Source: a virus
DNA: 56,769 nt
IMG/VR virus record: IMGVR_UViG_3300045973_000630
Location: 1 to 56,769 of that record
Reading direction: 5' to 3' (one strand)
Shown: positions 510 to 34,430 of the stretch, piece by piece
Layout of the letters: the number at the start of each line of letters is the position of its first letter
Numbering within the stretch: position 1 is the first letter of the stretch
Program-made: the position numbers and the translations under genes
The notes under the pieces: generated by a model
What the model was told of the DNA's origin: nothing
Database searches by the model: none
Seen by the model: the letters and a program-made list of their open reading frames with translations, nothing else

Positions 510-830
510 TTATATTTTTGTTAGCAGCATACCACTCAATATTAATAGAATTCCTAGGACTTGTACACTAGAAAGTTTGGCATTAAAGAAAATAATTGGA
601 ATTATTAAATAAGTAATTACAATCATGGAGTCCCAAATTAAAGCTTTAAGCATCAAACTACTTGAATTGCTTTCAGATTTTGCAATTAATAACCATAATA
701 CATTTGTGAGAATTCCGCCAAGTGCTCCGATAACTAAGTACCATTTTGATAATTTAAGTGTCTCAGAATAAGACACTGAAGCTAAACAGACATAAAGAGC
801 AAAGCCTAAAAGATATTGTAAATATGTCAT
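510..830 (-). CDS. small four-helix membrane protein, DMT/SMR-like
   Basis: 106 residues with about four hydrophobic segments and a C-terminal helix reading VLGILLILSGMLLTKI, which resembles the last helix of small multidrug resistance and EamA-type transporters. Its ATG overlaps the stop of the upstream gene (ATGA), so the two are translationally coupled. No substrate can be inferred. It could act at the inner membrane as a small transporter or a membrane modifier, or simply be a phage moron gene. Confidence 0.7.
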   Translation of the reverse strand: MTYLQYLLGFALYVCLASVSYSETLKLSKWYLVIGALGGILTNVLWLLIAKSESNSSSLMLKALIWDSMIVITYLIIPIIFFNAKLSSVQVLGILLILSGMLLTKI

Positions 831-1078
831 AGTTTAATACCGTGATACTTTAAAATCTTAAGGAACTTCTTTTCTAGGGCTGCAATAAGCTCTTCCGAAC
901 CTTCGAATTTCTCTAAAAGATGGGTTAGTTCTTTATCTTTATACCCATTTCGTCTAGCAGCTTCGAATATCTGAGATTTAATTTGTAATAATGCCTCTTC
1001 ATATTTAGATGCGTTTAAAGCTAAGTCATATTCTTCTTGTTCCGAGGGTAGATCGAATTCTATTAAGCCTTTGGTCAT
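827..1078 (-). CDS. hypothetical phage protein, 83 aa
   Basis: Highly charged, mostly helical small protein. The ATG at 1078 follows a GAGG Shine-Dalgarno. The opening FDLPSEQEEYDLALNA resembles a widespread family of phage proteins of unknown function that start with FDLPEE-like segments and often sit next to nucleotide-metabolism genes. It overlaps the membrane-protein gene downstream by four bases. No catalytic motif is visible. Confidence 0.8.
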   Translation of the reverse strand: MTKGLIEFDLPSEQEEYDLALNASKYEEALLQIKSQIFEAARRNGYKDKELTHLLEKFEGSEELIAALEKKFLKILKYHGIKL

Positions 1079-1119
1079 GACGGAACCTCATTGAGTTTAT
1101 TTTTCTTCTGGACAGGTTT

Positions 1120-1920
1120 TCATACAAACAACTTTCCAGTTAACGGAGGATGACTTTGATAATTAGTAAGTTTAAAGTGATCTTCTGTTATTTCAGTTAA
1201 ATCTGTAAACGGGATAATTTCTAGTTGAGTTCCCGGCATTGGCTCTCGAAGTATTTGCCCTCTTAAAATTTCAGTATGCGGTAAATAAATATGACTATCC
1301 CCCAAACAATGGGTCAGTATTCCGACTTGGTATCCGGTAAGTACTGCCATAATATGGGTTAACAACGCGTAATCTACAATATCTATTGGGACTCCGAGTA
1401 GCATGTCCCCGCTTCGTTGGTATAGTTGTGCATGTATTTTATCTTCTCGGATAAAAAATTGTATTAGCGGGAGGCAGGACGGTAGCGCACATCCGGTTCT
1501 TAAAGTTTGAGATACATTCCAATTACTAATTATTAGTCTTCTAGAGTTCGGATTTGTTTTTATTTCGTTAATTACCCAAGCTAATTGGTCAATACCTTCA
1601 TTATTAAAATTCCTAAAATGTTCCGGGTAACATCCTTTAATTGCGCCTGTTTCATCTGCCCAGTCTTTCCACCAAGGTTGAACTTTTATATGTAAGTTAT
1701 TTAAATTTGAAATTCCACCAATAAACCAAAGTATTTCTCTAATAGCATTTTTAAAGGCCATCTTTTTAGTAGTTAAAATTGGGAATTCTTTTGAAAGATC
1801 AAAAACCATTCGTTGGCTAACTAAACTAATAGTACCAGTTCCGGTTCTATCCATAATTTTAATACCATTATCTAAAATATCTTGGGCAAGTCTTTTGTAT
1901 TCTAAATCAGCTTGTGACAT
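1120..1920 (-). CDS. thymidylate-synthase-fold enzyme, probable dCMP (hydroxy)methylase
   Basis: 266 residues, a full-length ThyA-fold enzyme with ATG after GAGGTG. Visible elements are DRTGTGT (residues 24-30), WWKDWADETG, nucleophile Cys149, phosphate-binding Arg169/Ser170 in YQRSGD, and HIY (210-212). The decisive residue aligns with E. coli Asn177: GVPIDIVDYALL has Asp180 there. In T4 dCMP hydroxymethylase this position is Asp, and Asn-to-Asp changes switch thymidylate synthase from dUMP to dCMP. The usual PCH around the nucleophile is SCL. I therefore infer methylation or hydroxymethylation of dCMP using methylene-tetrahydrofolate. Which of the two products is made cannot be read from sequence. 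The dNMP kinase at 19973 would handle the product. Confidence 0.85.
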   Translation of the reverse strand: MSQADLEYKRLAQDILDNGIKIMDRTGTGTISLVSQRMVFDLSKEFPILTTKKMAFKNAIREILWFIGGISNLNNLHIKVQPWWKDWADETGAIKGCYPEHFRNFNNEGIDQLAWVINEIKTNPNSRRLIISNWNVSQTLRTGCALPSCLPLIQFFIREDKIHAQLYQRSGDMLLGVPIDIVDYALLTHIMAVLTGYQVGILTHCLGDSHIYLPHTEILRGQILREPMPGTQLEIIPFTDLTEITEDHFKLTNYQSHPPLTGKLFV

Positions 1921-1921
1921 G

Positions 1922-2455
1922 TTACACCTCTTTATTAGAATGCTTTATTACAAATAGTGCTTGGTTCTTAGCATCATCAAGTGCATTATGATTTGTACCT
2001 TCCGATTTATCTACCTTTTCATTATTAGCCACGAATCTACGAAAAGTCCTTAAGTCCATAGAATTATAGTACATAAATGGAACTTCTATATTATATTGAT
2101 TGAACATATTCTCTAAAATAGAAATATCGAAGGTATTCCCGTTGCCCCATGGTTTTAAATTCTTCTTATTGGTTTCTTGCTTAATCCAATATACCAAAGT
2201 ATTTAAAACTTCTGAAGTTGGTTTACTCTTTTCATGAAAAACTTTCTTAACTGCATCACTTTGAGACATCCACCACTTAAGAGTGGACCCGGTAATGCTA
2301 CGACCTTTTTTAAGTTGGTCTTCAATATCTAATGCCATGTAAAAGGTTGGCCCTAGTTGTTTAGTTTCGATATCAAAAAAGCAAGCACCGATAGATACTA
2401 CTATAGTATCTGGGTTTGTTCCTAAAGTTTCTAGGTCGACCATTAGATCATTCAT
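1922..2455 (-). CDS. 3'-5' exonuclease, DEDD family (Rv2179c-like)
   Basis: 177 residues. DLETLG near the N-terminus (Exo I Asp/Glu), NTFDISIL (Exo II Asp) and HNALDDA near the C-terminus (Exo III His/Asp) give a complete DEDDh active site. The STLKWWMSQ stretch is typical of the Rv2179c-like exoribonuclease family found in many phages. It probably trims RNA or single-stranded DNA 3' ends using two metal ions. ATG at 2455 after AGAGG. Tightly spaced with the neighbouring genes of the leftward operon. Confidence 0.88.
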   Translation of the reverse strand: MNDLMVDLETLGTNPDTIVVSIGACFFDIETKQLGPTFYMALDIEDQLKKGRSITGSTLKWWMSQSDAVKKVFHEKSKPTSEVLNTLVYWIKQETNKKNLKPWGNGNTFDISILENMFNQYNIEVPFMYYNSMDLRTFRRFVANNEKVDKSEGTNHNALDDAKNQALFVIKHSNKEV

Positions 2456-2456
2456 A

Positions 2457-2702
2457 TTACACCTCTGTTATTTGTAATGCACCGCTAATTATGGCTAATG
2501 CTTCAGTTCTATACTTTTTAATTGAACGTTTGTTCGCCGATCTAATTAAGCAATCTGTAATTACCCCAGTTATAGGTTGTGCAATTTGAATAAAGTGATC
2601 ATCCATAGAATCTTCGGCTGGTTCATAAGCTACTGGAATAGTAAACTCATCTAACGGAAATCTCTCTAAAAATTGTTCAAAAGTTTCAAATTTAATAGTC
2701 AT
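2457..2702 (-). CDS. hypothetical protein, 81 aa
   Basis: Small acidic protein beginning MTIKFETFEQFLERFPL. Two in-frame ATGs are possible, at 2714 and 2702. I prefer 2702 because it overlaps the TAA of the upstream gene (TAATG) and has GGGTG eight bases before it, while 2714 has no Shine-Dalgarno. No recognised domain. Its place between an exonuclease and other small genes suggests an early accessory function only. Confidence 0.7.
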   Translation of the reverse strand: MTIKFETFEQFLERFPLDEFTIPVAYEPAEDSMDDHFIQIAQPITGVITDCLIRSANKRSIKKYRTEALAIISGALQITEV

Positions 2703-3070
2703 TAGTACACCCATGATTTTTTTCTAGTTTCAGTTTTTTCGAAAAATGATTCTCGCAAAGTCGACCAAGTTGCGTTTCTAGAAGTATCTCGAGTTATACT
2801 TAACCCGTGAGTCCTTAAATACGAAAATACTTCCCCAATTAAAATATTTGCGCTTTTTGAAGTCTCTTTAGCGCTTAGTGCCTTAGTTATTTCTAAGTTT
2901 AAGTTCTTAGGATAATTTTCTATTTTAAAACCTTTGGAATATATACATTCTAAGGTCTTTTCAACTATAGCCAAAACTCTATCACATTTAGAACTATTAA
3001 TTTGCTGAACTGCATAATTCTTAAGCAAGTCTAAATCAAAAATAGTTAAATCTTCAAATTGTAATGTCAT
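2702..3070 (-). CDS. hypothetical protein, 122 aa
   Basis: The frame is open from 3103, but the ATG at 3070 (MTLQFEDL) is preceded by AGGAG at ideal spacing and overlaps the TGA of the upstream gene, so I chose it. The protein is lysine-rich and mixed alpha/beta in composition, ending KKSWVY. No motif or family is recognised. Confidence 0.75.
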   Translation of the reverse strand: MTLQFEDLTIFDLDLLKNYAVQQINSSKCDRVLAIVEKTLECIYSKGFKIENYPKNLNLEITKALSAKETSKSANILIGEVFSYLRTHGLSITRDTSRNATWSTLRESFFEKTETRKKSWVY

Positions 3071-3312
3071 TTTGAGACTCCTAACGAAACTACTAAGGGG
3101 CAATACTGGTCGGTATTAGCTGCGGTAGATACTGTAGTACCTAAATTCCCGACGCCCCATTGTGAAGGTATGCTAACAATAGGGGTATTAGTTATTAATT
3201 GACCGGGGATAGTTCTAAGCGCCTCTAATTCTCTTATACGTTGATCTTTAAGTTCTAAGAGTTTCGATAACTCTTGAATTTGTTCTCTAAGTATATTTTC
3301 TATAGTTTTCAA
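3067..3312 (-). CDS. hypothetical coiled-coil protein, 81 aa, TTG start
   Basis: The first residue is encoded by TTG at 3312, with a strong GGAGG eight bases upstream; no better start exists. Residues 1-32 form a short amphipathic coiled coil (LREQIQELSKLLELKDQRIRELE). The rest is a Ser/Thr/Val-rich tail. No function is recognised. It is coupled to the next gene by a four-base overlap. Confidence 0.7.
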   Translation of the reverse strand: MKTIENILREQIQELSKLLELKDQRIRELEALRTIPGQLITNTPIVSIPSQWGVGNLGTTVSTAANTDQYCPLVVSLGVSK

Positions 3313-3333
3313 AGTAAACCTCCAAGCTTTTAA

Positions 3334-3867
3334 CTAGTGTAACTCGTCTTCGGATCCCGGTACACGAATTCTTTGAAATTCTATTTCTGCAGCTTCAAAT
3401 TGAGACTGTACATCAAAAGGTTTATTTGGATCCCGATCCCTACCAAGCACTTTCGAGTGTATAAAAGCCTGCATATCTTCGACAGTTGCTGAATTTAACC
3501 AAGTATCTAAAACATCTTGAGATACATACAAATTCTTTATCGCTACCGCATCTTCGCCTAGATAAGTTTCCCCTACAGAATCTTCAATATATGAATCATG
3601 GAGTTCAATTATTGGATGGATATCTTTTAAATTTTGGAACCAGATAATAACTTCAGGATGTGTCAAATCGATATGAAAACTTATCACAATAGATTGTGAT
3701 TCTTGACTTGGGAAGATTCCGAAGAACAATTTAAAGAGCGGCAGTTTATCTTTATAAAAGACGTGAATGTTTCGATGTTCAACTTCAACATCTAATTTAT
3801 AGACATCTTTAAGTTTTCCTATTAAGTAAATATATTGGTCATACATTCTAATTACTATATTTGACAC
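3334..3867 (-). CDS. hypothetical protein, 177 aa, GTG start
   Basis: Acidic soluble protein with alternating beta-type segments. The GTG start at 3867 lies three bases after the TAA of the upstream gene and has AAGG nearby. It ends in an Asp/Glu-rich tail. I recognise no catalytic motif or family. It belongs to the leftward early operon by orientation and spacing. Confidence 0.72.
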   Translation of the reverse strand: MSNIVIRMYDQYIYLIGKLKDVYKLDVEVEHRNIHVFYKDKLPLFKLFFGIFPSQESQSIVISFHIDLTHPEVIIWFQNLKDIHPIIELHDSYIEDSVGETYLGEDAVAIKNLYVSQDVLDTWLNSATVEDMQAFIHSKVLGRDRDPNKPFDVQSQFEAAEIEFQRIRVPGSEDELH

Positions 3868-3868
3868 T

Positions 3869-4120
3869 TTATACCTTAGGTTTCTTTAATACTTCAGTTT
3901 TAAACTCGGCAAGAAACGAGTCTCTCCAATTATCATATTCAGATTTATTACTTTTGGGAAGGTCTATTTTAACTTTTCGGGGGCGTATTGGTTTTACTAT
4001 ATTTTGAAGTTCTGCTTTTAACTGTTTGATTTCTTTAGTTTGTTTTAAAACTAAAGAACGTAGCTCTCTAATAGTTTCTTTATCCTTTTTCGAGTTTTCT
4101 TTTGTAGGGATTTTACTCAT
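3869..4120 (-). CDS. hypothetical basic coiled-coil protein, 83 aa
   Basis: Lysine-rich protein. Residues about 8-42 are a heptad-like helix (TIRELRSLVLKQTKEIKQLK), followed by a basic RPRKVK segment and a second helix. The ATG overlaps the TGA of the HNH remnant gene upstream (ATGA). It may bind nucleic acid through its basic patch, but that is inference from charge only. Confidence 0.7.
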   Translation of the reverse strand: MSKIPTKENSKKDKETIRELRSLVLKQTKEIKQLKAELQNIVKPIRPRKVKIDLPKSNKSEYDNWRDSFLAEFKTEVLKKPKV

Positions 4121-4236
4121 GTAATTTTACTCCCTTTTTTCATATTATCTATAGCCCATAACGGTTGTAAATTTGTATAATGACATGCTTTTAGGTCTTT
4201 AGAATACTGATGTAGTCCTTTTTGACATGTTTTCAT
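4117..4236 (-). pseudogene. HNH endonuclease remnant, 39 codons, internally deleted
   Basis: A short in-frame ORF of 39 codons lies between the helicase stop and the next gene. Its first 16 residues, MKTCQKGLHQYSKDLK, are identical to the start of the gene at 41672, and the DNA there matches at 46 of 48 bases. Residues 18-37 read CHYTNLQPLWAIDNMKKGSK, the classic C-terminal end of phage HNH endonucleases (TNLQPLWA-x-DN-x2-KG). The metal-binding HNH core between the two parts is missing, so this looks like a homing endonuclease that lost its middle by an in-frame deletion. It could still be translated. Confidence 0.75.
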
Positions 4237-4238
4237 AC

Positions 4239-5699
4239 TTAAAATCTCAGATCTTTAATTTTACAGTTAAAATTTCTAATATAAATTTCTAGTCGGTTCT
4301 CTAGATGTCTGGCTAAATAATTAGTCCCCTCAAAAAAGAAATCATGCAAGTAAGCAATTGATTTTCCTTCAAACTTTCGAATAGCCCGCCCGGCATTTTG
4401 GACACATAGTATTTCTGATTTTCCCCCTACACAATTGATTAAATGATCAGTGGACTTAATATTAATGCCCTCCCCGATGACGGAAGATCCGATAAGAATT
4501 CGTACTAATTTTTCGTTAAATTCGTTAATTGTATTATTTATTAGTTCTTTTGAGTCATCTCCATTAATATATGAGCAGATTACTCCATGTGTAGTCAAAT
4601 ATTCTGAGATTACAAGTCCAACTTTATCCTTCTGTGAAACTAAGATTAAAACTTGATTATCTAATTCAACATTTTCAATTATTTCCAATATTTTATTTAA
4701 AACCGCGGGATTTCCAGAATAACTCTCTTCATATTCTTTTTGATACTTTGTAATAGGTCTTCCTGGAATTTGATGAACTAGTACTTCAAGTGGAGTTAAA
4801 TACCCTTCTTGAGTAGCTTTCCAAGCTGGGTACTCATATAATATATTAGAGGCTACTCCCCATAGAGCTAGTATGTCGGCTCCTTGACGTAAATATGTTC
4901 CAGAAAACGAAAATCGATAATAAATATGATCAAGATCTGGTAGTAGTGTTAGATAAGATTCCGCGGAAGAATGGTGTGCCTCATCAATAAATAAAGCTTC
5001 CATTTGGAGTGCAAATTTTTGAAATTCTCCAGATTTTTGTAAAGACGCTAGGGACTGAACTGTTATAATATTTATTGCTTTTGGTCGTTTATTTAGTCTA
5101 ATTTTCTTTGCATCTAAAATTTCTACATTTGTAGATCCAAACCATTCTTCGAAATCTGAGTATAATTGTAAACTCAAACCTCTTGACGGAACTATAATTA
5201 AGTTAGTTACCGCAAGTTCTTTAATTAAATATGCTAAAATACAGGTTTTCCCGGAACCGACACAAGAAGAGAAAACACCCCGACCGGCCTCGAGGCCTAG
5301 TCTAATCATTTCCTTTTGATAGTATCTAGGTTCAAAAGGTTTGTTATTCCACCTTAAAATTTGAGAGGACGAAGGAATCTCTCGTCGGTCCTGTACCTCA
5401 AACGGGGTACAAACTTCTTCTAAAGTTGCTTTAACAATGTTTAAAAGCCCAGTAGGAAACTTATTATCTTTGATTAAACATACGTATTCAGTTTTTTCTA
5501 AGTAAGCAATTCGAGCTTTCGCTATATTGTAACCCTTTAAGTTATTGTAACGCTTAGCATTTTGCATACGATAAAAGCAGGCCGCTTTTTCTGCATCGAT
5601 ATCATTTCGATAAGTAAGGACTTCCGTTAGAAGATCTTTAGCTTCTTTAGGTATATTCCCAGAAATGGTTGTAAATGAATTACTAACAATTAGTTGCAT
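4239..5699 (-). CDS. superfamily 2 DNA helicase, UvsW / T5 D10-like
   Basis: 486 residues. A Q-motif-like RYYQKE (125-130) is followed by Walker A GSGKT (148-152), DEAH (239-242), SFSGTY (motif III) and QNAGRAIRK (motif VI). This is the core of the UvsW/D10 group, ATP-driven helicases that unwind branched DNA and promote branch migration, so it should work with UvsX, gp46/47 and the RuvC-like resolvase of the rightward block. It is the first gene of the leftward operon and opens just left of the divergent control region. Confidence 0.9.
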   Translation of the reverse strand: MQLIVSNSFTTISGNIPKEAKDLLTEVLTYRNDIDAEKAACFYRMQNAKRYNNLKGYNIAKARIAYLEKTEYVCLIKDNKFPTGLLNIVKATLEEVCTPFEVQDRREIPSSSQILRWNNKPFEPRYYQKEMIRLGLEAGRGVFSSCVGSGKTCILAYLIKELAVTNLIIVPSRGLSLQLYSDFEEWFGSTNVEILDAKKIRLNKRPKAINIITVQSLASLQKSGEFQKFALQMEALFIDEAHHSSAESYLTLLPDLDHIYYRFSFSGTYLRQGADILALWGVASNILYEYPAWKATQEGYLTPLEVLVHQIPGRPITKYQKEYEESYSGNPAVLNKILEIIENVELDNQVLILVSQKDKVGLVISEYLTTHGVICSYINGDDSKELINNTINEFNEKLVRILIGSSVIGEGINIKSTDHLINCVGGKSEILCVQNAGRAIRKFEGKSIAYLHDFFFEGTNYLARHLENRLEIYIRNFNCKIKDLRF

Positions 5700-6676: not shown

Positions 6677-9277
6677 ATGTCAAAACGAATTATTACTCGC
6701 GAACAACTAATAGATCCCAAACTAAAAGGCTTAACTGCAATCTCGAGCGTAGTTAAACGAACTTTAGGACCAGGTGGACTATTAATTTTAATCGAAAGAG
6801 TTGGGCAAACACTAGAAGGACTTCCGCTCGGGCCTAAGATCACAAAGGATGGGGTAAGTGTCGCGGAAGAGTGCGCATCTATAGATAAGGCTGAAGATAT
6901 TATAATTCAAGCGGTTAAGGGAATTTGCCGTAAAACAGTTAGTACTGCGGGTGATGGCCCCCAACCACTTTATAGTAAAGTTCTTACTCCAAAAGGTTTT
7001 ATAGAGATGCGAGATGTAAGGGTTGGGATGGTTATCTGTGGTACTAACGGAACAGTTCAAAAAGTTTTAGGGGTTTTCCCAAAAGGCCAAAAAGAGATCT
7101 ATGAAGTAGAGATTCAAAATAAAGGAATAGTAGAATGTTGCGAAGACCATGTTTGGTCAGTTACTAAAAACAGTAATGGGGGCGCGGATTCTGTAAAATC
7201 TGTAGCGGAACTTATAAAAGATTATAAAAAAGAAGGTATACAGTCTACAAAATATAATTATTATATACCAAAAACTCCGGTTTACTTTCAAGAGAATACT
7301 GCGGAAATGCCCTTAGACCCATATTTACTTGGAGTTTTGTTAGGAGATGGTTGTTTAAAAGATGGTTCTAGTATTGAGTTAGGACTGGGAGTTAAAAAAG
7401 AACATATATTACAAAAATTAAAACCACCTAAGGGAATTAATACAAATATCCAATTTGTAGAGTCTAGGAATTATTTTAGAGTTAAATTTTCAGGTATTTC
7501 GGAGACCGGAAAATCAATGAGAGATTATGTAGAGTCTTTAGGATTAAGAGACGCAGGTAGTTTTACTAAGTTTATTCCAAAATCCTATTTATACGCCTCT
7601 ATTGAAACTAGATCCCAAGTCCTACAAGGATTAATTGATACAGACGGATGCGTTAACGAGCGAGGCTTATTTGAGTTTAGTACAGGCTCAAAAGAACTAG
7701 CAACGGACCTTCGAGACCTAGTTTTGAGTTTAGGTAAGACAGTTCATATGTATCTCAGAGATCGAAGTAATGACAATGCATTCTCAAAGACTCCCATGTA
7801 TAGAATTGGAGAATTAAAAGGATTTATACATGGAGATAAAATAAAAGAAATTAAAGCTACTGGCAGGTTTACCGAAATGCAGTGCATTAAAGTAAGTAAT
7901 CCGGATAGTTTATACATAACGGATAATTATGTAGTTACACATAATACCACAACTGCTATGGTATTAGGTGAAGCAATTGTAAACGAGACCGAGCGCATCT
8001 TAAAAGAAGATACTAAGCTTAACCCGCAATTAGTTAGAGAATCTCTAGAAGAGGCATCTTTACAAGTAATTAAGAAACTTAAAAAGATAGCAATTAAAGT
8101 TAATAATAATAAAACTATCCAACAAGTAGCTACAATCTCTGCAAACGGAGACGAATCTATTGGAGATATTATCGCAGCAGCTTTTGCGCATGTAGGTGCC
8201 GAAGGGGTTGTAACTGTAGATGAGGGACATACTTCAAAAGTTACCTTAGATGTAGTTGACGGATATCAGTTCAATAGGGGCGCCGAGGGTCGTACCGCGT
8301 TTTTCAATAATAGAGACGCAACCCAATTTGAAGCGGAAGATGCAGCATTAATTATTTATGATGGAAAATTATATAACTATACTCAATTAATTCCAGCACT
8401 TAAGTTATTAGCGGGAGTCGGTGCGGATGAAAAAGCATCTCGAAAGATGCCGCCCACTGTAATTGTGGCAAATGAGTTCAGTCCAGAAGTACTTCAGTTC
8501 CTGTTAATTCAAAAAACAGAGATGGGGATGACCTTCTGTCCAATCACTGGACCGAATACTACCCATGTGAGATCTGGGTACTATGATGATTTAGCAGTTT
8601 ACTCAGGTGGAACTAGACTTGGAAATGGAGCACGCAACCTTGAGTCTATTGAAATGGATGATATTGGCCTCGTAAAAAGAGCATTATCTGATAAATATAA
8701 AACTACATTATATGATGGGCAAGGTTCTGAAGAATCAATTCTAGAAAGAGTAGACCAATTAAAAGCTGCAAAAGCACAAGCAGAGTCCCCATATGACGCA
8801 CAAATCTTAAATGATAGACTTGCATCACTAACTAATGGTATAGCTAAAATTGGAGTTGGTGGAACTACTGAAATGGAAATTAAAGAGAAGTATGACCGAA
8901 TAGAGGATGCATTAAACGCAGCACGCGCGGCAATCGAGGAGGGAGTTGTACCAGGCGGTGGAACTACTTTATTAAGAATTGCGTTAGAGATGCCTGAGAA
9001 GACAGTTGGTCAAAAGATCCTAAAAGTAGCATTACAAGCTCCATTCTTTCAAATCTTAGAGAATATTGGTATTTTTAAAGAAGAAGCTCTAGAAGTGTCT
9101 AAAACTCTCGTTAAGAGTAAAAGTAAGGTTTATGATGCAAGAACTAAGCAGATCAAAAATGCGATGACTGCGGGGATTATAGACCCAGTAAAGGTGACTA
9201 GAACTGCCTTGGAGAACGCGGTATCAATAGCAACCCTATTAAGTACTTGCGGTGGAGCAATTACTTACGAAAAATAA
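6677..9277 (+). CDS. groEL: GroEL-type chaperonin interrupted by a class 3 intein
   Basis: The 866-codon precursor splices to a 537-residue chaperonin (E. coli GroEL is 548). Extein motifs are KRTLGPGG, TKDGVSVA, AGDG/TTTA (nucleotide phosphate loop, split by the intein), IEDALNAARAAIEEGVVPGGG in separate short segments near the C-terminus, and no Gly-Met tail. The apical domain (TVDEGH...QFNRG) is more divergent, as expected if it is tuned to a phage substrate. The product should form a ring that folds phage proteins with ATP; the partner is probably the GroES-like protein at 35933. ATG follows AGGAGG. A strong terminator follows at 9307, so the gene is probably a single transcription unit. 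Confidence 0.95.
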   Translation: MSKRIITREQLIDPKLKGLTAISSVVKRTLGPGGLLILIERVGQTLEGLPLGPKITKDGVSVAEECASIDKAEDIIIQAVKGICRKTVSTAGDGPQPLYSKVLTPKGFIEMRDVRVGMVICGTNGTVQKVLGVFPKGQKEIYEVEIQNKGIVECCEDHVWSVTKNSNGGADSVKSVAELIKDYKKEGIQSTKYNYYIPKTPVYFQENTAEMPLDPYLLGVLLGDGCLKDGSSIELGLGVKKEHILQKLKPPKGINTNIQFVESRNYFRVKFSGISETGKSMRDYVESLGLRDAGSFTKFIPKSYLYASIETRSQVLQGLIDTDGCVNERGLFEFSTGSKELATDLRDLVLSLGKTVHMYLRDRSNDNAFSKTPMYRIGELKGFIHGDKIKEIKATGRFTEMQCIKVSNPDSLYITDNYVVTHNTTTAMVLGEAIVNETERILKEDTKLNPQLVRESLEEASLQVIKKLKKIAIKVNNNKTIQQVATISANGDESIGDIIAAAFAHVGAEGVVTVDEGHTSKVTLDVVDGYQFNRGAEGRTAFFNNRDATQFEAEDAALIIYDGKLYNYTQLIPALKLLAGVGADEKASRKMPPTVIVANEFSPEVLQFLLIQKTEMGMTFCPITGPNTTHVRSGYYDDLAVYSGGTRLGNGARNLESIEMDDIGLVKRALSDKYKTTLYDGQGSEESILERVDQLKAAKAQAESPYDAQILNDRLASLTNGIAKIGVGGTTEMEIKEKYDRIEDALNAARAAIEEGVVPGGGTTLLRIALEMPEKTVGQKILKVALQAPFFQILENIGIFKEEALEVSKTLVKSKSKVYDARTKQIKNAMTAGIIDPVKVTRTALENAVSIATLLSTCGGAITYEK
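6959..7945 (+). mobile_element. class 3 intein with LAGLIDADG homing endonuclease, inside groEL
   Basis: Codons 95-423 of the groEL precursor (329 residues) replace nothing in the chaperonin: AGDG before and TTTA after restore AGDGTTTA. The first residue is Pro95, not Cys or Ser. The class 3 WCT triplet is present: Trp160 two residues after block B His158, Cys403 at block F position 4 (QCIKV), and Thr421 before the terminal His-Asn (THN, 421-423). The +1 residue is Thr. Block A reads YSKVLTPKGF. Two dodecapeptides, YLLGVLLGDG (216-225) and LQGLIDTDG (316-324), mark a LAGLIDADG endonuclease. Splicing would use Cys403 as the branching nucleophile. Confidence 0.92.
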
Positions 9278-31992: not shown

Positions 31993-32232
31993 GTGGGAAA
32001 GATAAAAATCTTCGTAGAAGATAACGAATCCCAATTAGAAGTAGAAGAATCTTTACATAAAGCTCTAGAATTTCATAGTTCTGGAGATGTGCATGAAACT
32101 GAATTATTTGAAGATGCGGGAGCTCAAGATTTATTAAATAAACTTGAACTTTTGCATAAAAACTTATATATTCAAATACTTAATGAAATTTATGAAGCTT
32201 TAGACGAGGACTATACAAATGGTAACATCTAA
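31993..32232 (+). CDS. hypothetical acidic protein, 79 aa, GTG start
   Basis: Begins with GTG directly after the portal stop (TAA GTG), probably by re-initiation. Strongly acidic (LEVEESLHKALEF, YEALDEDYTNG). Overlaps the start of the MuF-like gene by 14 bases. It may be a small portal- or head-associated factor; no family is recognised. Confidence 0.65.
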   Translation: MGKIKIFVEDNESQLEVEESLHKALEFHSSGDVHETELFEDAGAQDLLNKLELLHKNLYIQILNEIYEALDEDYTNGNI

Positions 32233-34075
32233 AACAACTCTTGAAAAAATTAGAGAAATCATAAGCAAGAATTACGCTAAATTAGCAATTTCAGTATTAG
32301 GCAAATCTGTGTTAACGGATAAAGAACTTAAAGAGTTAAAAGCACAAGGTATTGATATCTCAAATACAGAATCTCTATTTGCATTATTATATAATCATGC
32401 ATTTATCAATCCACCAGAAGATACTCTAGGACCTAAATCTGTAGAAGATATGGAAAGTCAACAATCGGTAAGAGGGCTCCTCCCAGAAGGTTCTGCACAC
32501 GATTATGTTATAGAAAATCTAAATGATAAAACTAAACAACTTATAGACAAGCTTAAAGTAGATGTAATCTCTAGGGTTGAGGGATTAATACGAGAAAATA
32601 ATGATGTGTATCGAGTTGATGCGCTACAAAATTTAGATAGAACAGATTTGTTGGACGAATTGACTAAGGAGTCTAGCCTAGGAAAACTTAAGCAAAAATT
32701 AAGAGACACATCTAAAGAAGCAAACCGAGACTGGCTAAGAGTAGCAGTTACCGAAATGTCTAATGCTATCGGAATAGCGACCACAGATCGAATTGTGGTA
32801 GATAATAGATCTAAAAATTTAGAAGAGGTCTATGTATATAGAATTGCTCATAAAGATGGAAAAACATGTTTTACTGAGGCCGAAGAAGTATGTATGGCTA
32901 CTGGAGAATTGTGTCAGTTAAAGGATATTAAAGTCGGGGATTTATTACAGTCTGGGACTAGGAAAAAAGACAGAAATATAGGGTCGAAATCTAAAGTAGT
33001 TAGAATAGAGACAAAATTAGCAGAAGTGCTAGAATATCAATTTAGTGATGGAACGGTTATAAAGTGTACGTCTGATCATCCTATTTTAGTAAAATATAAA
33101 AAATTCTTAGGATTTATTCCGGTTTATATGTTAGAAACTACTAAGGTTAAATTTACAGTACCAAAGTACCAAGAGTTAACCACTGGAGAACGTGCAAGTA
33201 TAGGACGTATGCCAAGTTGGGCACTACAAATGGCCCCGAACTATACTGATTTCTTTTACTTTTGGCAAGACTATGGTCCTGAATTACTAGCAGATATTAG
33301 AAAAAGTAACTCATTTAAAGATTTACAAGAAAAATGGCAATTCCCGAAAATTGGTAATTGCCGAAATCTAGGCACGTTAGCCGCACTTTGCGGAGAGTCT
33401 TTTTCTAAATATACTAAAATTTCAAGTGCTAATAATAATTATAATGTAGAGTATCTAGAGCACCTTGCCACTAAATGTTTAGCCAAACTAGATTTAAGCG
33501 CGGAGGACCTAACTCGAGATCTAGGGTTGCACGGCTATAAATTTGTTATTAAAAAGTATAATATCAGTTTTCATATTCTAAAATTTTGGGTTATTCAAAA
33601 TTTAGGAAGTGCTTTTGATAAGAAGATTAGAAAATTAGGAAAAATTAGAGCACAACGAGCCGGTCAAACTAGTATTGCAAATACTCCCGGACTTCGCGAA
33701 AAACTAAATAATGAGGCCAGGACTAGACTAATAAGAAATTGTAAATCTACATCAAAACCTCAACGCGTGTTGTTTAATACTTTAAAATTAACATATCCAG
33801 CTATACAGTTAGAGGTCCCGATATTAGAAGCTTTTCGAGCAGATATTTTATTGAATAATATAATTATAGAATTTGATGGAAGTGGGCACTGGCTATTTGG
33901 AAAAGGTAGTAAAGCGCGAGATGAAGCTAGGGATAGACTTTGTACCCGGTATGGGTATTCTGTAATTAGAATTAAATCCCCAAAAGATAAGCAACCACCA
34001 ATTGAGAGTTTAACTAAGATACTAGAAATAATCAAACCTGGAGAATATAAGGAGATACACTGTGATAGTTTCTAA
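32219..34075 (+). CDS. MuF-like head protein N-half + N-intein + EDxHD endonuclease
   Basis: 618 residues in one frame. Residues 1-216 are the N-terminal part of an SPP1 gp7/MuF-like head morphogenesis protein, ending HKDGKT. Cys217 begins an intein N-half: block A CFTEAEEVCMATGEL, then IKVGDLL, and block B TVIKCTSDHPILV (His287). From about residue 320 a linker with DNA-binding-like helices leads to a C-terminal nuclease: RADILL, IIIEFDGSGHW (Glu551, Asp553, His557), then ARDEARDRLCTRYGYSVIRI, the EDxHD (Vsr-like) homing endonuclease pattern. The gene ends with TAA; the intein C-half is in the next gene. Spliced product is predicted at 302 residues. Confidence 0.88.
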   Translation: MVTSKTTLEKIREIISKNYAKLAISVLGKSVLTDKELKELKAQGIDISNTESLFALLYNHAFINPPEDTLGPKSVEDMESQQSVRGLLPEGSAHDYVIENLNDKTKQLIDKLKVDVISRVEGLIRENNDVYRVDALQNLDRTDLLDELTKESSLGKLKQKLRDTSKEANRDWLRVAVTEMSNAIGIATTDRIVVDNRSKNLEEVYVYRIAHKDGKTCFTEAEEVCMATGELCQLKDIKVGDLLQSGTRKKDRNIGSKSKVVRIETKLAEVLEYQFSDGTVIKCTSDHPILVKYKKFLGFIPVYMLETTKVKFTVPKYQELTTGERASIGRMPSWALQMAPNYTDFFYFWQDYGPELLADIRKSNSFKDLQEKWQFPKIGNCRNLGTLAALCGESFSKYTKISSANNNYNVEYLEHLATKCLAKLDLSAEDLTRDLGLHGYKFVIKKYNISFHILKFWVIQNLGSAFDKKIRKLGKIRAQRAGQTSIANTPGLREKLNNEARTRLIRNCKSTSKPQRVLFNTLKLTYPAIQLEVPILEAFRADILLNNIIIEFDGSGHWLFGKGSKARDEARDRLCTRYGYSVIRIKSPKDKQPPIESLTKILEIIKPGEYKEIHCDSF

Positions 34076-34169
34076 GAAATCATTAGGAGTACAGAATATC
34101 GTAGAGTTAGAACTAGATCAAAATTCTAGCAAAACTTATATAAATAAAGACGGAATTATCTCGCACAAT
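32867..34169 (+). mobile_element. split intein with EDxHD homing endonuclease in the MuF-like gene
   Basis: The N-half starts at Cys217 (base 32867); the C-half ends at Asn36 of the second gene (base 34169). They are interrupted by a stop codon and a new, well-formed translation start (AAGGAG at 34049-34054, GTG at 34062). Joining the exteins gives DGKT-CRWCSEFY, restoring the CxxC metal site of MuF-like proteins. The nuclease lies in the same frame as the N-half, unlike fractured genes in which the nuclease is a separate ORF. Confidence 0.85.
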
Positions 34170-34430
34170 TGCAGATGGTGTTCCGAATTTTATGTTGATA
34201 ACGATGGAAGTCCTAAGCTTTATAAGTTAACTTCATTATTAGATAACGGGTCTAACTACGGTAAAAAACGAGATACTTGGCAAGCCGTTATTGGTGCCAC
34301 CCATCCGAATGAGCGATGTTCTGGTATTTTAGAATTAAAACCCGGGTTTATGCTTAAGTCTGATGGGACCAGTACATATATCGGAATGGCTAAATGGCCT
34401 GGATATATTTTGAATAAAGTTCAAAAATAG
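34062..34430 (+). CDS. C-intein + C-terminal half of MuF-like head protein, GTG start
   Basis: 122 residues from GTG, with AAGGAG seven bases upstream. Residues 1-36 are the intein C-half: VELELDQNSSKTYI (block F) and GIISHN (block G). Residue 37 is Cys (+1), beginning CRWCSEFY, then GATHPNERCSGIL, the Cys/His cluster typical of the end of MuF/gp7 proteins. Trans-splicing with the product of 32219 would rebuild a head protein that joins portal and capsid. The gene overlaps the previous one by 14 bases in another frame. Confidence 0.87.
   Translation: MIVSKKSLGVQNIVELELDQNSSKTYINKDGIISHNCRWCSEFYVDNDGSPKLYKLTSLLDNGSNYGKKRDTWQAVIGATHPNERCSGILELKPGFMLKSDGTSTYIGMAKWPGYILNKVQK

What the first reader, a model, noticed from the sequence alone, without database searches (positions are those of the whole stretch)
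32219..34430. Split intein in a MuF-like head gene, with an EDxHD endonuclease fused to its N-half
Seen: the first gene ends after an intein N-half (Cys217, blocks A and B) and a C-terminal EFDGxxH nuclease; the second begins at GTG with AAGGAG seven bases upstream and opens with an intein C-half ending HN-C. Joining exteins at DGKT/CRWC rebuilds the CxxC metal site of MuF/gp7 proteins. Known: fractured genes with split inteins usually carry the endonuclease as a separate ORF between the halves. Inference: here the nuclease travels as part of the N precursor and would be removed with it on trans-splicing, so one polypeptide both homes and splices. An essential head protein would then depend on trans-splicing.
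Basis: partly seen in the sequence, partly recalled or inferred. Interest (0 to 1): 0.9.

Follow-up and report, generated by a model that had tools for sequence, protein, structure and literature searches.

The report
Phage split intein with fused nuclease
A phage head gene is broken in two by a protein-splicing element (intein) whose first half also carries a DNA-cutting homing enzyme, and a distantly related phage carries the same arrangement at the same spot, so it looks natural and not a sequencing mistake.

Summary
ORF1 (32219-34075) is a MuF-like N-extein (216 aa), an intein N-half (Cys217, TxxH block B), a 171-aa middle region and a Vsr/DUF559-type nuclease. ORF2 (GTG 34062, TAAGGAG 7 nt upstream) is a 36-aa intein C-half ending HN, then an 86-aa C-extein starting with Cys. 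The joined exteins are 302 aa, the length of the two closest whole homologues. All homologues found lack the insert, which sits directly before the invariant CxxC. The decisive new evidence is L033, a distant metagenomic phage contig with the same layout at the same site: 26% identity across the intein N-half and nuclease, again two overlapping ORFs but in a different relative frame. That makes a sequencing error or programmed frameshift very unlikely. The predicted nuclease structure is nearest to I-Bth0305I. The first Glu of "EDxHD" is Gln here, as in 29 of 33 aligned sequences. No internal SD-backed start was found in ORF1, so the nuclease is probably made only within the N precursor. Best explanation: a naturally split, trans-splicing homing intein with its nuclease fused to IntN, a variant of the "fractured gene" arrangement. 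Splicing and cleavage are untested. Relatives showed something possibly stranger: Vibrio phage inteins with the nuclease gene antisense inside.

The parts
32219..32866 (+). N-extein: residues 1-216 of a MuF/gp7-like minor head protein
   Evidence: aligns with 17 intein-less loci, 63% identity to L001 over residues 1-217
32867..33166 (+). intein N-half (IntN, residues 217-316): Cys1, KVGD, TSDHP block B
   Evidence: TIGR01445 E 0.016 at 217-291 alone; profile of four IntN hits PDB inteins 2LWY 1.1e-9 and gp41-1 9.9e-6
33167..33679 (+). middle region, residues 317-487; probable DNA-recognition part (inferred)
   Evidence: conserved only with L033; no convincing family match
33680..34072 (+). Vsr/DUF559-type nuclease domain, residues 488-618 (SKPQ..FRADI..IEFDGSGH..RDEARDR)
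   Evidence: DUF559 E 1.7e-4 above gathering score; 31-sequence AlphaFold model pLDDT 82.8; top PDB fold match I-Bth0305I 3R3P prob 0.99; PDB profile hit 3HRL E 1.1e-5
34048..34054 (+). Shine-Dalgarno TAAGGAG for ORF2, inside the end of ORF1
   Evidence: 7-nt match, 7-nt spacer
34062..34075 (+). 14-nt overlap: GTG start of ORF2 to TAA stop of ORF1 (ORF2 in +1 frame)
   Evidence: in L033 the overlap is 13 nt and the frame relation is +2
34062..34169 (+). intein C-half (IntC), 36 aa, block F-like and ISHN
   Evidence: matches the C-terminal part of DnaE inteins in PDB weakly, E 0.23; TIGR01443 E 0.14; IntC profile that includes this sequence, supportive only
34170..34427 (+). C-extein, 86 aa, starts with Cys+1 = first Cys of CxxC; stop TAG 34428-34430
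   Evidence: aligns with the C-terminal part of the intein-less homologues

Best explanation
The locus is a naturally split, mobile intein in a MuF/gp7-like head gene, with its homing nuclease kept in cis on the N-half. Two proteins are translated from one mRNA region, the second from its own SD-backed start overlapping the end of the first: ExtN-IntN-middle-nuclease, and IntC-ExtC. The halves meet, form the Hint fold and trans-splice. That releases a 302-aa head protein with its CxxC restored, and leaves the IntN-nuclease bound to the 36-aa IntC. The nuclease cuts intein-less alleles at the CxxC-coding site of co-infecting phages and the element is copied in by repair. Shown: anatomy, empty site, conserved catalytic residues, nuclease fold, SD-backed second start, an independent second copy of the architecture. 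Inferred: trans-splicing, cleavage, target site, translational coupling.
For: All intein chemistry residues are present: C1, TxxH, penultimate His, terminal Asn, Cys+1. The split lies where known split inteins break, giving a ~100-aa IntN and a ~36-aa IntC; that site coincides with the usual endonuclease insertion point (PMC11923092). The homologues aligned and five relatives of the L033 gene are uninterrupted at the site. L033 repeats the architecture with 26% identity, E 5e-21, at the same site. The L033 intein is 31% GC in a 40-41% GC gene, a sign of transfer. Nuclease. Start site. No SD-backed internal start in ORF1.
Against: Individual family hits for the intein halves are weak and below curated cut-offs. 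The usual block F Asp is absent (IVELELD). The helix Glu of EDxHD is Gln, so activity cannot be assumed. L033's second start has no SD of 4 nt or more by the scan (AAGAG 9 nt upstream by eye). There is no read-level or experimental evidence. Only two loci are known.
Confidence: 0.82

Rival explanations
1. The gene is one continuous intein-bearing frame with an in-frame nuclease; the break at 34062-34075 is a sequencing or assembly error, or a recent frameshift mutation.
For: A contiguous intein with an in-frame Vsr-like nuclease does exist in a related MuF-like gene (L039). The window is a single metagenome-derived virus record.
Against: L033 has the same break at the same place in a contig related at 26% identity, with a different frame relation (+2 instead of +1). 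Two independent errors would have to fall in the same few codons. The second ORF has a strong SD and a start codon exactly at the IntC border.
Confidence: 0.06
2. A programmed ribosomal frameshift joins the two frames and the intein then splices in cis.
For: The overlap is short (13-14 nt) and upstream of it both frames are open for some codons.
Against: The required shift differs between the window (+1) and L033 (+2/-1). The SD spacing fits initiation (7 nt), not +1 shifting next to the stop. No slippery site was recognised by eye.
Confidence: 0.04
3. The halves never splice: the gene is simply in two pieces whose products assemble without covalent joining, and the intein parts are remnants.
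For: A phage ribonucleotide reductase in two pieces that keeps its function is known (cited in PMC10448857).
Against: Every intein catalytic residue is kept in both the window and L033 despite about 26% overall identity. The break falls directly at the CxxC motif, which is conserved across the intein-less homologues.
Confidence: 0.06
4. A variant of the best explanation: it is a split intein as described, but the nuclease is inactive and the element no longer homes.
For: Gln replaces the helix Glu. The intein GC equals that of its host gene, so there is no sign of recent transfer.
Against: Gln is the rule in 29 of 33 aligned domains, many of them in free-standing ORFs. The D, IE, DG, GH and R columns are kept. 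The domain stays open and foldable.
Confidence: 0.3

Closest known systems
Fractured genes (Dassa et al. 2009, NAR 37:2560): phage genes broken by split inteins with a Vsr-like or other homing endonuclease; also the MIJ3 polB split intein with an HNH endonuclease in a separate ORF (PMC6892783)
   Same: phage gene broken by a split intein, with a homing nuclease, in part of the same Vsr-like family
   Different: there the nuclease is a free-standing gene between the halves (Dassa from own knowledge, the paper is not held; MIJ3 read); here it is the C-terminal part of the N precursor and no gap is left
Bifunctional contiguous inteins with an inserted endonuclease (L039 here)
   Same: nuclease at the same point between IntN and IntC, in frame with IntN
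   Different: here translation stops after the nuclease and IntC has a new start; L039 is one ORF, at a different site (HPN|C)
I-Bth0305I / EDxHD homing endonucleases and the CapR-DUF723 associated EDxHD/Vsr outgroup (PMC12350094)
   Same: catalytic domain fold
   Different: helix Glu is Gln; fused to IntN; different DNA-recognition region
Naturally split DnaE and gp41-1 inteins
   Same: Cys1/Cys+1 chemistry, split position, size of halves
   Different: those carry no nuclease on either half (own knowledge)

Membership tests
Class 1 split intein (Hint) | Cys/Ser at intein position 1 | tested here: met
   Cys217
Class 1 split intein (Hint) | block B TxxH | tested here: met
   CTSDHP
Class 1 split intein (Hint) | C-terminal His-Asn and Cys/Ser/Thr +1 | tested here: met
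   ISHN|C
Class 1 split intein (Hint) | Hint-fold sequence relationship | tested here: met
   profile of IntN hits solved inteins E 1e-9 to 1e-5; single-sequence hits are below cut-offs; single-sequence AlphaFold failed
Class 1 split intein (Hint) | halves encoded by separate ORFs | tested here: met
Class 1 split intein (Hint) | protein trans-splicing | not testable with these tools
   needs experiment
EDxHD (Vsr-like) homing endonuclease | I-Bth0305I-like catalytic fold | tested here: met
   Foldseek top hits 3R3P, prob 0.98-0.99, TMt 0.62-0.63, but E only 0.03-0.05
EDxHD (Vsr-like) homing endonuclease | namesake acidic residues, helix Glu included | tested here: inconclusive
   the Glu column is Gln here and in 29 of 33 aligned domains; D, E, D, H and R columns conserved; residue mapping to I-Bth0305I not possible, paper not held
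EDxHD (Vsr-like) homing endonuclease | site-specific cleavage of the intein-less allele | not testable with these tools
   empty sites identified only
MuF / SPP1 gp7-like minor head protein | profile match | tested here: inconclusive
   no hit for the window or its closest homologues; divergent relative L017 matches TIGR01641 at 3.3e-7 and PF04233 at 4e-4 (both below cut-off), L005 TIGR01641 at 0.013
MuF / SPP1 gp7-like minor head protein | gene position after terminase and portal, before head protease and major head protein | tested here: met
   gene order and families
Fractured gene (Dassa type) | gene broken by a split intein | tested here: met
Fractured gene (Dassa type) | free-standing endonuclease gene between the halves | tested here: not met
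   nuclease is in frame with IntN, no internal SD-backed start

The most novel reading that the evidence does not exclude
The fused, split form is a stable class in its own right: a bipartite homing intein in which trans-splicing is the step that frees the nuclease from the head protein and restores the CxxC site, so that splicing in trans gates both head-protein maturation and homing. It would also be the intermediate between contiguous endonuclease-bearing inteins and fractured genes.
Probability: 0.2. Interest if true: 0.8.

Novelty: new variant of a known kind. Interest (0 to 1): 0.62.

Why it matters
How split inteins arise is open: by a free nuclease gene landing inside an intein, or by breakage of an endonuclease-bearing intein. 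A split intein that still carries its nuclease in cis, found twice at one site in distant phages, with contiguous (L039), free-standing and overprinted nuclease arrangements in relatives, gives a natural series to test this. It also offers new split-intein pairs and a homing system whose nuclease is released by trans-splicing.

Tried and rejected
AlphaFold of residues 217-618 without an alignment gave pLDDT 35 and was discarded. Close-relative scans with the intein alone or with ORF2 alone found nothing, nor did two scans of bacterial and archaeal genomes. A further profile scan for whole relatives returned only L033 again. Whole-protein hits to mycobacteriophage Hint proteins are weak (E ~0.05) and were not used. 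AXH/ataxin-1 hits were set aside as a weak cross-match to the IntN region. Programmed frameshifting was considered and rejected because the frame relation differs between the window and L033. Free expression of the nuclease from an internal start was rejected for the window (no SD-backed start) but not for L033, which has AAGGA before ATG 4473. Dassa 2009, the I-Bth0305I paper and a review on splitting inteins are not in the library. No paper on inteins in MuF genes was found.

Full report
What is there. ORF1 runs 32219-34075 (618 aa) and ORF2 34062-34430 (122 aa, GTG start); they overlap by 14 nt in different frames. The family libraries give only weak hits to whole ORF1: Intein_splicing 0.022, Hint 0.016, intein_Nterm 0.016 at 217-291, DUF559 1.1e-3. 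Cut into domains, the last 139 residues pass the DUF559 gathering score (1.7e-4) and match a PHROG called homing endonuclease (1.2e-3). The C-half of 37 residues aligns almost along its whole length with a DnaE intein, but at E 0.23.

Empty sites. A scan of IMG/VR found 18 loci coding for relatives of the extein (L001 and L004 are the same contig), and 17 entered the alignment (L016 only in part). In every aligned locus the gene runs through the site uninterrupted; L001/L004 and L002 are exactly 302 aa, the length of the joined window exteins (216 + 86). The intein sits directly before the first Cys of the CxxC that all aligned members share. This is a typical intein site: a highly conserved codon, with Cys as the +1 nucleophile.

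Is the break real? Three lines say yes. (1) The GTG lies exactly at the border where a canonical IntC begins and has TAAGGAG 7 nt upstream; only 1.65% of start-like triplets in the window have an SD match of 5 nt or more in range. (2) Searching with nuclease relatives gave L033 (IMGVR_UViG_3300042090_002687). There a MuF-like N-extein, IntN, middle region and nuclease form one ORF, and IntC + C-extein form a second one starting at ATG 5339, overlapping by 13 nt, at the same CxxC (NVT|CNDC). The two N-side inteins align over their whole length at 26% identity, E 5e-21. (3) The relative frame differs, +1 in the window and +2 in L033, so neither one shared frameshift signal nor one shared error can explain both. 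Five relatives of the L033 gene, up to 70% identical, lack the intein at that site. The L033 intein is 31% GC inside a 40-41% GC gene, as expected of a transferred element; in the window the GC values are about equal.

The intein. C1, KxGD, TxDHP, HN and Cys+1 are shared by the window and L033. A profile of four IntN sequences finds solved inteins: 2LWY 1e-9, gp41-1 1e-5 to 5e-5, then more weakly PI-SceI, NrdJ-1 and DnaE. The sizes (about 100 and 36 aa) and the split point match the common natural split position, which is where endonucleases usually sit (PMC11923092).

The nuclease. Thirty-three aligned domains share S, D, IExDGxGH, R and G columns. Its two best PDB matches are the catalytic domain of I-Bth0305I (3R3P; probability 0.98-0.99, E 0.03-0.05, TM-score on the target 0.62-0.63). 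A sequence profile hits the DUF559 structure 3HRL at 1.1e-5. The helix Glu that the EDxHD name probably refers to is Gln here, and Gln in 29 of the 33 domains, so the name should be used with care. Most of these relatives are free-standing phage ORFs with repeats of the DUF723/CapR kind (by eye), which fits the EDxHD/Vsr outgroup described in PMC12350094.

Fused or free? ORF1 has no in-frame internal start with an SD of 4 nt or more, so in the window the nuclease should be made only as part of the N precursor. L033 has one candidate internal start (ATG 4473, AAGGA), so free nuclease is possible there.

How it probably works. The two precursors are made from one message, associate through the intein halves and trans-splice, giving the intact head protein and an IntN-nuclease:IntC complex that can cut intein-less alleles. 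Splicing, cutting and translational coupling are inferences; anatomy, empty sites, conservation and fold are shown.

Compared with what is known. The element works like the fractured-gene split inteins and like contiguous endonuclease-bearing inteins. It fails one defining feature of the fractured genes as reported, a free-standing nuclease gene between the halves (for MIJ3 read in PMC6892783; for Dassa 2009 from own knowledge). I found no published natural split intein with the nuclease fused to a half, but the key papers are not in the library, so novelty is stated as a new variant, not more.

The same search showed other ways in which related nucleases live in inteins: in frame in a contiguous intein (L039); in another frame of the same strand (L065/L066); and on the opposite strand in three Vibrio phages. 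The last is well supported. In Vibrio phage 1.266.O the antisense ORF hits DUF559 at 1.9e-10. It is 51% identical in phage 1.265.O, whose N-extein is only 29% identical, and both antisense ORFs have an SD-like sequence upstream. More than 20 Vibrio phages over 90% identical in the exteins match only in two pieces and have a gene of exteins length only, so they lack the intein. A sense-strand, out-of-frame hidden HNH gene in a phage methylase is published (PMC11855218), without an intein around it.

Noticed in passing
L021 3653-4390 (+) inside 3200-5323 (-); L022 3731-4468 (+) inside 3275-5401 (-); L087 2489-3229 (+) inside 2051-4144 (-): Three Vibrio phages (MG592631, MG592457, MG592630) have a contiguous intein in the MuF gene and, on the opposite strand inside the intein-bearing gene, a Vsr/DUF559 homing endonuclease ORF with its own SD. 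HEG identity between the two lineages is 51%, intein frame in the overlap 38%, N-extein 29%. An antisense, overprinted HEG inside an intein may be a new arrangement.
   Followed up: partly
L066 1162-1818 (+) inside 519-2486 (+); L065 likewise: A clamp-loader-like gene (DNA_pol3_delta2) with a contiguous intein has a DUF559 nuclease ORF (E 2.4e-13) nested in another frame of the same strand at the usual endonuclease position.
   Followed up: partly
window 6677-9277: A phage GroEL/Cpn60 gene carries a second, contiguous intein with a LAGLIDADG domain. It starts after AGDG without Cys/Ser, has a block F Cys and ends THN|T, so it looks like a class 3 intein (class from own knowledge).
   Followed up: partly
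L039 3699-5609: MuF-like gene with a contiguous intein bearing an in-frame Vsr-like nuclease at the HPN|C site, and GFYE in place of CxxC.
   Followed up: partly
L002 306-956: An ORF that looks like a GIY-YIG homing endonuclease sits between the terminase and portal genes of a relative (by eye).
   Followed up: no
L053 5405-5409: The free-standing nuclease ORF intact in L050 is broken by a stop just upstream of the catalytic motif in L053.
   Followed up: no
L027 3509-4645 and 6575-7363: Weak IntN and IntC profile hits in separate ORFs about 2 kb apart, next to tandem nuclease-like ORFs; possibly another intein arrangement.
   Followed up: no
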